Shown: positions 5,592-6,614 of the stretch, piece after piece
Position numbering within the stretch: the first letter of the stretch is position 1
How the letters are laid out: the number at the start of each line of letters is the position of its first letter
Assembly: GCF_000716605.1 (NCBI RefSeq)
Contig: NZ_JNXE01000008.1
Span: 62,001 to 126,000, forward strand
Origin: Streptomyces sp. NRRL F-525
Lineage (GTDB): Bacteria; Actinomycetota; Actinomycetes; Streptomycetales; Streptomycetaceae
Direction of reading: 5' to 3'
DNA: 64,000 nt
Translations under genes and position numbers: made by a program
The notes under the pieces: model-generated
The model's database searches: none
Told to the model about the DNA's origin: nothing
What the model saw: only the letters and a program-made list of their open reading frames with translations

Positions 5592-6614
5592 TCAGTACTG
5601 CTCGGTCTCCACGAAACCGGCGTCCACGTCGTCGTCGGCACCATAGGTGTCGGCAGCGGCGGAGAGGTTCAGTCCGGGAGGGCTGTCCTTCAGGCCGAGG
5701 CCCATGCCGGCCAGCTTCTCCTTGACCTCGTCGATGGACTTCGCGCCGAAGTTGCGGATGTCCATCAGGTCGGCCTCGGAACGCGCCAGAAGCTCGCCCA
5801 CCGAGTGGACGCCCTCGCGCTTGAGGCAGTTGTACGACCGAACGGTGAGCTCCAGCTCCTCGATCGGCAGGGCGAGATCGGCGGCAAGGGCGGCGTCCGT
5901 CGGGGACGGGCCCATGTCGATGCCCTCGGCGTCGATGTTGAGCTCACGCGCCAGACCGAACAGCTCCACCAGGGTCTTACCGGCGGACGCCATGGCGTCA
6001 CGGGGACGCATGGCCTGCTTGGTCTCGACGTCGACGATCAGCTTGTCGAAGTCGGTGCGCTGCTCGACACGGGTCGCCTCGACCTTGTACGTGACCTTGA
6101 GCACGGGCGAGTAGATCGAGTCGACCGGGATACGCCCGATCTCCTGACCGACCTGCTTGTTCTGCACGGCGGAGACGTAGCCGCGACCGCGCTCGACGGT
6201 CAGCTCCATCTCCAGCTTGCCCTTGCCGTTGAGCGTGGCCAGGACGAGATCGGGGTTGTGCACCTCGACACCGGCCGGGGGCGCGATGTCGGCGGCGGTG
6301 ACCAGACCCGGACCCTGCTTGCGCAGGTACATCACGACAGGCTCGTCCTGCTCACTGCTGACGACGAGCTGCTTGATGTTGAGGATCAGGTCGGTGACGT
6401 CCTCCTTGACGCCCGGCACGGTGGTGAACTCGTGCAGCACTCCGTCGATGCGGATGGACGTGACCGCCGCACCCGGGATCGAGGAGAGGAGCGTACGGCG
6501 CAGGGAGTTGCCAAGGGTGTAGCCGAAGCCCGGCTCCAGCGGCTCGATCACGAACCGGGAGCGGAACTCGTCGACGACCTCTTCGGTCAACGAGGGGCGC
6601 TGAGCGATCAGCAT
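5592..6614 (-). CDS. rpoA: DNA-directed RNA polymerase subunit alpha, stand-alone copy
   Basis: A full-length 340-residue alpha subunit starting MLIAQRPSLTEEVVDEF. The N-terminal assembly domain is complete (GYTLGNSLRRTLLSSIPG). The C-terminal domain keeps the DNA- and activator-contacting residues of TVRSYNCLKREG and NFGAKSIDEVK, equivalent to E. coli R265, N268, C269 and the G296-S299 region. The terminal EQY tail is present. Nothing looks broken, and the start has GGAGG at a good spacing. Canonical rpoA lies between rpsK and rplQ; here the neighbours are a hypothetical gene and exporter remnants, so this is most likely a second copy. From memory of the usual Streptomyces RpoA, the differences concentrate in the C-terminal domain and tail (for example LLARSEADLMDI). 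It could alternatively be a relocated sole copy, which I think unlikely. Confidence 0.93.
   Translation of the reverse strand: MLIAQRPSLTEEVVDEFRSRFVIEPLEPGFGYTLGNSLRRTLLSSIPGAAVTSIRIDGVLHEFTTVPGVKEDVTDLILNIKQLVVSSEQDEPVVMYLRKQGPGLVTAADIAPPAGVEVHNPDLVLATLNGKGKLEMELTVERGRGYVSAVQNKQVGQEIGRIPVDSIYSPVLKVTYKVEATRVEQRTDFDKLIVDVETKQAMRPRDAMASAGKTLVELFGLARELNIDAEGIDMGPSPTDAALAADLALPIEELELTVRSYNCLKREGVHSVGELLARSEADLMDIRNFGAKSIDEVKEKLAGMGLGLKDSPPGLNLSAAADTYGADDDVDAGFVETEQY

What the first reader, a model, noticed from the sequence alone, without database searches (positions are those of the whole stretch)
5592..6614. Stand-alone, apparently second copy of the RNA polymerase alpha gene
Seen: a complete, undamaged 340-residue alpha subunit with its own ribosome binding site, between a hypothetical gene and exporter remnants. 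Known: rpoA in Streptomyces lies between rpsK and rplQ. Inference: this is a duplicate that could assemble polymerase with a different C-terminal domain, altering activator contacts or resistance. From memory of the usual RpoA, changes cluster in the C-terminal domain and tail.
Basis: partly seen in the sequence, partly recalled or inferred. Interest (0 to 1): 0.88.

Follow-up and report, generated by a model that had tools for sequence, protein, structure and literature searches.

The report
Second RNA polymerase alpha gene, Streptomyces
This soil bacterium carries a second, intact gene for the alpha subunit of its RNA polymerase, one of a family of spare copies scattered through Streptomyces chromosomes and plasmids, whose assembly half matches the normal gene while the regulatory half and tail differ.

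Summary
Confirmed: window 5592-6614 (minus strand) is a complete 340-aa RNAP alpha gene, and the genome holds one other, in the ribosomal operon. It is no assembly duplicate: 76 nt and 12 aa differ, 11 of the 12 in the C-terminal domain (CTD) or tail. It belongs to a family ('rpoA2' here): at least 63 of 392 Streptomyces genomes have a full-length or nearly full-length extra copy, most with a shared leader (57 of 70 loci); 21 Streptomyces plasmid records hold an rpoA. Extra copies look gene-converted by the host's operon copy, most in the N-terminal-domain (NTD) part, less in the CTD, not in the tail. V269 is in 55 of 69 extra and 1 of 62 operon copies, and the window's CTD is under purifying selection. 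Recalled DNA- and activator-contact residues are unchanged, so 'altered activator contacts or resistance' is unsupported. Most likely RpoA2 assembles freely with RpoA and gives mixed-alpha polymerases; expression and phenotype are untested. A second rpoA in S. avermitilis was printed in 2011 (PMC3294249); my seven searches found no account of the family, conversion or plasmid carriage.

The parts
5592..6614 (-). rpoA2 coding sequence, 340 aa, extra RNA polymerase alpha subunit
5595..5876 (-). codons 247-340 (CTD and tail), holding 11 of the 12 aa changes (residues 269-324)
6624..6628 (-). Shine-Dalgarno GGAGG, inside the family leader motif CTGGAGGCAACACC
   Evidence: read directly; patterns of this motif match 48, 57 or 64 of 70 extra copies, by strictness
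6637..6656 (-). leader inverted repeat GGCG-TCACATAGCGGG-CGCC, kin of the repeat in front of operon rpoA
6670..6675 (-). -10-like TANNNT box (TAGGCT here, TACCCT in many relatives)
   Evidence: TANNNT in this range in 63 of 70 extra copies, 6.2 expected in letter shuffles; function inferred
6615..6776 (-). leader stretch homologous to other extra copies (up to about 162 nt)
   Evidence: blastn extents
5485..5591 (-). 3' flank homologous to other extra copies (up to about 107 nt past the stop; six loci reach 100 nt or more)

Best explanation
The gene is a working second alpha subunit, RpoA2, of a sporadically distributed Streptomycetaceae family that descends from operon rpoA together with its leader. 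It is made from its own promoter. Its N-terminal domain, which dimerises and holds beta and beta', is practically identical to RpoA's, so it should enter polymerase freely as alpha-alpha2 and alpha2-alpha2 pairs (inferred). What differs is a CTD with conservative, mostly non-contact substitutions and a freely varying tail, on average less acidic. The cell would then contain a mixture of polymerases that bind the same DNA elements but differ subtly in CTD stability and tail, with the ratio set by the separate leader of rpoA2. Shown: two genes, family, shared leader, purifying selection, a conversion-like pattern limited to part of the gene, an rpoA on plasmids. Inferred: promoter activity, expression, assembly, regulatory effect.
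For: Intact second gene with its own leader. Against the sister species' copy (G068) the window copy has 0 nonsynonymous/33 synonymous changes in the NTD and 1/14 in the CTD (one-sided Fisher 9e-9), the two sharing V269, L276, M284 and E299; so the variant CTD is held by selection on protein. Signature residues recur: V269 55 of 69, L276 32 of 69, G307 33 of 69, Q89 25 of 69 extra copies, against 1, 1, 0, 0 of 62 operon copies. All 70 loci taken were open (chosen as full-length or nearly so). DNA-contact residues conserved in 70 of 70. In G380 the operon gene, flanked by rpsM, rpsK and rplQ, is nucleotide-identical to that genome's rpoA2 over codons 61-312 and, alone of 62 operon copies, carries V269/L276: a CTD with these residues serves in the operon gene there. 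Extra-copy tails are less acidic on average (net 6.1 against 8.0).
Against: No expression, proteomic or genetic data were found. dN/dS within the family is higher than among operon copies (0.083 against 0.008), so constraint is looser. The distribution is patchy (63 of 392 genomes), so the gene is dispensable. CTD changes are conservative and may have no effect; two extra copies (G382, G242) lack the normal tail. Gene conversion can keep the NTD clean without selection on RpoA2 itself. The direction of exchange in G380 rests on the residues: in codons 263-312 its DNA differs from two other extra copies by 4 and 6 nt and from four relatives' operon copies by 10, 7, 9 and 6, which does not separate the two. 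Over the whole gene the window copy is slightly nearer to the operon rpoA of G236 (0.060) than to any extra copy (0.063), and its own operon copy is further (0.075).
Confidence: 0.62

Rival explanations
1. Dosage or spare copy: RpoA2 is functionally equal to RpoA, and only the extra amount or separate regulation of alpha matters.
For: NTD nearly identical, contact residues conserved; in G380 the operon copy carries the same CTD as rpoA2; conservative CTD changes.
Against: Recurrent CTD residues, kept between sister species, are not needed for mere dosage.
Confidence: 0.4
2. Persistent passenger: a plasmid- and arm-borne gene, repeatedly gained and lost, kept readable mainly by gene conversion with the essential operon copy, with little use to the host.
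For: Patchy distribution; an rpoA on 21 Streptomyces plasmid records; fast-changing neighbourhoods; identical codon runs of 60 or more in 43 of 67 own pairs; partial and split copies in further genomes.
Against: Purifying selection in the window copy's NTD although it shows no recent conversion there and in the CTD; shared leader and -10-like box.
Confidence: 0.25
3. Self-resistance by target duplication or altered activator contacts.
For: Streptomycetes do duplicate targets of their own antibiotics (recalled).
Against: No widely recurrent neighbour in 70 loci; contact determinants unchanged; rpoB single; I recall no antibiotic that targets alpha. No search for a biosynthetic cluster in the window was made.
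Confidence: 0.04
4. Assembly duplicate or contamination.
For: Draft of 241 contigs.
Against: 7.4% nt difference; contamination given as 0; same family in single-contig genomes; the window copy groups with the extra copy of sister species G068 in the gene tree (SH-aLRT 89).
Confidence: 0.01

Closest known systems
Second rpoA of Streptomyces avermitilis MA-4680 (Mukhamedyarov et al. 2011, PMC3294249; passages read)
   Same: Same genus, rpoA2 outside the ribosomal operon; the paper calls it a fairly recent duplication.
   Different: The only streptomycete named in the passages read; leader, CTD residues, gene conversion and plasmid carriage are not in them. I did not test whether that gene belongs to this family.
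Francisella alpha1/alpha2 (same paper)
   Same: Two different alpha subunits in one cell.
   Different: There the heterodimer forms in preference and all sequenced Francisella genomes have both; here the NTD is near-identical and the gene is sporadic.
Chloroflexus rpoA pair (same paper)
   Same: Paralogues without drastic changes at the assembly surface.
   Different: Reported as ancestral in those species; here patchy, and an rpoA also on plasmids.
Nonomuraea duplicated RNA polymerase gene, rpoB (recalled; titles seen in the reference list of PMC13118837)
   Same: Actinomycete with a second copy of an RNAP subunit gene.
   Different: Another subunit, with drug-resistance-type changes (recalled).

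Membership tests
Bacterial RNAP alpha subunit (NCBIfam NF003514, TIGR02027) | Equivalog score above the curated cut-off | tested here: met
   650 against 434 and 381 against 228 bits
Bacterial RNAP alpha subunit (NCBIfam NF003514, TIGR02027) | Both domains complete, DNA-contact residues of the CTD kept (positions recalled from E. coli) | tested here: met
   full-length alignment to 7vpd chain A; residues at E. coli 265, 268, 269, 296, 298, 299, 302 equal in 70 of 70
Streptomycetaceae extra-copy family (rpoA2, as defined here) | Outside the ribosomal operon | tested here: met
   rpsM, rpsK, rplQ absent from 68 of the 69 other extra loci in the DNA held (the exception L041 is treated as a chimera)
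Streptomycetaceae extra-copy family (rpoA2, as defined here) | Family leader CTGGAGGCAAYACC plus inverted repeat | tested here: met
Streptomycetaceae extra-copy family (rpoA2, as defined here) | Frequent CTD residues V269 and/or L276 | tested here: met
   both present in the window copy; not universal in the family
Francisella-type alpha heterodimer | NTDs diverged between the two copies | tested here: not met
   1 aa change (H89Q) in residues 1-228
Francisella-type alpha heterodimer | Heterodimer forms in preference to homodimers | not testable with these tools
   needs protein
S. avermitilis second rpoA | Sequence kinship of the window copy to the S. avermitilis copy | not tested
   that genome did not come up

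The most novel reading that the evidence does not exclude
rpoA2 is an exchangeable regulatory module for the core polymerase: a gene carried on giant plasmids and chromosome arms that supplies an alternative alpha CTD and tail while gene conversion keeps its assembly half matched to whatever host it lands in; occasionally the CTD is written back into the essential operon gene (as in G380). Core RNA polymerase would thus be a part-mobile, locally tuned component in Streptomyces.
Probability: 0.25. Interest if true: 0.8.

Novelty: new variant of a known kind. Interest (0 to 1): 0.57.

Why it matters
RNAP core subunits are treated as vertically inherited, slowly changing markers; a passage of PMC13118837 names rpoA among such genes in Streptomyces. 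About one Streptomyces genome in six in this sample carries a second, constrained alpha gene, and plasmid records of the genus hold one too, in the genus on which much antibiotic regulation is studied. It makes heterogeneity of the core enzyme directly testable in harmless laboratory species, and it warns that rpoA-based typing, draft assembly and knock-down experiments can be confused by a near-identical second copy.

Tried and rejected
Transposon-like unit: pairwise DNA similarity among extra copies ends, by the per-locus median, 107 nt or less upstream of the start and 17 nt or less past the stop, reaching 100 nt or more past the stop with at least one other locus in 24 of 70, and few pairs share neighbours (21 of 2415 pairs with 2 or more shared ORFs, shadow ORFs included). 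This at first looked like a gene moving alone. Searching flanks between sister species showed shared landmarks near the locus in G104/G252 and G161/G308, and pieces of the window's flank and the rpoA2 of G068 all lie in the last 1.3 Mb of its 12.1-Mb chromosome. So at least these can be inherited loci in fast-rearranging surroundings; movement of the bare gene is not shown.

Phage carriage: of 21 phage-collection records matched, none is a Streptomyces phage by name, and identities are under 60% save one 79-residue piece; rejected. Rfam: no match at gathering score in window 4000-9000. Gene tree of whole rpoA: 17 label changes, poorly resolved; in that tree L003 and L006 were wrongly labelled as operon copies although they are the same loci as L034 and L035. 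Distances between species give no clear verdict on transfer (correlation with species distance 0.41 for operon copies, 0.45 for extra copies), though G285's copy lies much nearer to some distant species' copies than its operon gene does (0.048 against 0.103). The dN/dS counted serine codon switches as nonsynonymous; replaced. Structure prediction and a search for biosynthetic clusters were not run.

Rows dropped or unevenly treated: of 87 genomes with two or more matches (recounted) I passed 70; 17 were left out (G001, G021, G032, G075, G097, G146, G198, G279, G281, G317, G319, G333, G336, G339, G350, G373, G375). By E-value all of these but G279 have only partial best matches; G279 has a full-length one and should have been followed. 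Of the 70, seven have only partial or CTD-like second matches (G025, G060, G234, G084, G115, G295, G302). So 63 of 392 is a lower bound. It counts G382 and G242, whose copies end at 324 and 314 aa, and the window's own genome. L041 (G142) has rplQ behind it and an operon-type CTD, probably an assembly chimera; it is in the counts of 70 loci and out of the counts of 69. Paired analyses use 67 of 70 loci, because G142 (three loci) has no intact operon copy.

Full report
Observation. The window holds a complete alpha gene on the minus strand at 5592-6614, scoring 650 bits against the rpoA equivalog NF003514. The host genome gave one other rpoA match, at C5:79250-80269 with 96% aa identity, between rpsM-rpsK and rplQ-truA (names by my reading) and on the same contig as the only rpoB. 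The copies differ at 76 of 1023 nt and 12 of 340 aa: one change in the NTD (H89Q), five in the CTD (I269V, V276L, L284M, A299E, A307G) and six in the tail. The clustering at 247-340 has probability 4e-6 by chance.

A family. Of 392 Streptomyces genomes searched, 63 have at least one full-length or nearly full-length extra rpoA, 70 loci in all (one of the 70, L041, is probably a chimera). The number is a lower bound, because 17 of the 87 genomes with several matches were not followed. Genome sizes copied: median 10.0 Mb, 2 of 63 under 8.0 Mb. Among 121 genomes of the family, genomes of other genera (codes g3, g7, g8, g13) also have full-length second matches. A strict leader pattern found 91 stretches in named species genomes, including S. 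noursei, S. cyaneus, S. viridochromogenes, Actinacidiphila and Streptantibioticus. Of these 91, 84 have an rpoA match in the DNA held, 53 of them full-length, and 46 of the 56 readable at residue 269 have V. 21 Streptomyces plasmid records of 79 kb to 2.35 Mb hold an rpoA. The three I opened have a family-type leader; one of the three has V269, two have I269. Insertion-sequence genes lie within each of the three stretches shown. The other 18 were not examined beyond the match. No close relative turned up in the phage collection.

Leader. Many extra copies share a leader of about 60 nt, CGTACCCTTCGTGGTGTCTACGGCGTCACATAGCGGGCGCCAAACCACTGGAGGCAACACCTC before GTG or ATG; patterns for its last part match 48, 57 or 64 of 70 loci, by strictness. 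A TANNNT box lies 55-75 nt before the start in 63 of 70 against 6.2 expected in letter shuffles. The operon leaders have an inverted repeat of 5-6 pairs in 62 of 62, around TCAAATAGYGGG in 57 and a one-letter variant in 5. In the extra copies the same search found it in 50 of 70, with 4 or more pairs in 43; several of the 20 misses differ by a letter. So the extra gene appears to have left the operon with its leader. Three loci (L081, L085, L094) have an operon-like ribosome-binding region. In 24 of 70 loci the similarity to at least one other locus continues 100 nt or more past the stop; for the window six loci do so.

Position. In 38 loci on contigs above 6 Mb, 15 lie in the outer tenth on either side, 9 in the next 15%, 14 inside; operon copies are inner in 30 of 36 (some records are probably rotated). 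Neighbouring genes are rarely shared (21 of 2415 pairs share 2 or more ORFs). Yet two sister pairs show common landmarks near the locus, so part of this is inheritance in fast-changing surroundings.

Gene conversion. For 67 extra copies with an operon partner, third-position difference to the own operon copy is 0.064 over codons 121-228 against 0.170 with partners shuffled (0 of 2000 shuffles as low); codons 1-120 0.104 against 0.164 (0 of 2000); 229-312 0.150 against 0.208 (0 of 2000); the tail 313-340 0.245 against 0.247 (732 of 2000). So exchange is strongest in the NTD, weaker in the linker and CTD, and not seen in the tail. Runs of 60 or more identical codons occur in 43 of 67 own pairs and in 2.8% of pairs with other species. 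The shared leader argues that this is conversion and not dozens of separate duplications, though some recent duplications cannot be excluded. The window copy itself shows no recent NTD conversion (0.25 and 0.21 in codons 121-180 and 181-228; longest run 32 codons); over the whole gene it is nearest to the operon rpoA of G236 (0.060), then to G068's extra copy (0.063), then its own operon copy (0.075), so parts of it may have come from elsewhere. In G380 the operon gene, with rpsM, rpsK and rplQ beside it, equals the genome's rpoA2 at every base of codons 61-312 and is the one operon copy of 62 with V269 and L276. That suggests transfer from rpoA2 into the operon, although the DNA distances in codons 263-312 (4 and 6 nt to two extra copies; 10, 7, 9 and 6 to four operon copies) do not settle the direction.

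Selection. Departure from the operon consensus, extra against operon copies: NTD 1.4% against 0.3%, CTD 6.3% against 0.1%, tail 14.9% against 0.75% (69 extra copies). dN/dS between extra copies is 0.040 NTD, 0.104 linker and CTD, 0.280 tail; between operon copies 0.010, 0.002, 0.012. Thus the extra gene is looser but constrained. The closest test is the window against its sister species' copy: NTD 0 nonsynonymous and 33 synonymous, CTD 1 and 14 (p 9e-9), tail 5 aa changes and a gap. Six of the window's twelve changes are found in 10 or more of the 70 loci, the window included (H89Q 25, I269V 55, V276L 32, L284M 13, A307G 33, D316N 10).

Mechanism. By recalled E. coli numbering (offset 6), the residues of the 265 determinant (R265, N268, C269, G296, K298, S299, E302) and E273 are unchanged in 70 of 70; 287 in 68 of 70; the sigma-facing 261 becomes D in 18 and 259 in 7, neither in the window. 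The changed CTD positions 269, 276 and 284 are hydrophobic and conservative, and I expect them to be in the core (recalled fold, not tested). The solved alpha chain 7vpd (recalled as S. coelicolor) has the operon-type letters at all twelve sites except none of the window's. I therefore infer that RpoA2 enters the polymerase like RpoA, makes mixed dimers, and at most tunes CTD dynamics and the tail's interactions, with its own promoter setting the share. Equal function with more dosage is the strongest rival. No call shows expression.

Literature. PMC3294249 (passages read) reports two rpoA in Francisella, three Chloroflexus species and S. avermitilis, identical copies in Psychromonas ingrahamii and a Leptospira strain, and predicts more. 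Seven full-text searches, of whose hits I saw listings and, for two papers, passages, showed no paper describing the Streptomyces family, its conversion or plasmid carriage in the open library; most subscription journals are not held. So the kind is known, and the variant appears not to be described there.

Noticed in passing
L032 8190-8230 and 61 other operon copies: Conserved inverted repeat with near-invariant loop TCAAATAGYGGG just upstream of operon rpoA in 62 of 62 genomes looked at; stems vary in a pair-keeping way (GGGCG/CGCCC, GGACG/CGTCC, GGGCA/TGCCC, GGACA/TGTCC). Possible leader RNA or operator of rpoA; no formal covariation count made.
   Followed up: partly
window 11396-14133: Family 2B encapsulin shell gene with cNMP-binding domain next to a cysteine desulfurase that matches the encapsulin cargo model below its cut-off.
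   Followed up: no
window 6804-9267: ABC-exporter fragment (PF00664) and a weak LysR-like fragment upstream of rpoA2; looks like a stretch of gene remnants.
   Followed up: partly
window 4161-4748: Ricin-B-type beta-trefoil lectin-domain protein.
   Followed up: no
G142 C73 (L041); G336, G427, G436, G481, G451: Draft assemblies with rpoA split over contigs, or crossed over inside rpoA (G142), as two near-identical copies would cause; copy numbers from drafts are unsafe.
   Followed up: partly
L035, L055, L059, L085, L087, L091, L093, L095, L097, L098, upstream of rpoA2: In 10 of 70 extra loci a small divergent ORF stands upstream, reading like VGDQVTHDVYGLGRVIGIEDG (resembles a CarD-type N-terminal motif, recalled).
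   Followed up: no
G047, G069, G175, G191, G311 operon copies (L130, L131, L133, L134, L162): In these genomes the gene just before operon rpoA ends like rpsD (QLIVELYSK, my reading), unlike the other operon loci; G069's leader resembles the rpoA2 leader.
   Followed up: no
G254 C1:608773 and C1:10931041: Two identical rpoA2 copies near the two chromosome ends with matching flanks, probably in terminal inverted repeats.
   Followed up: no
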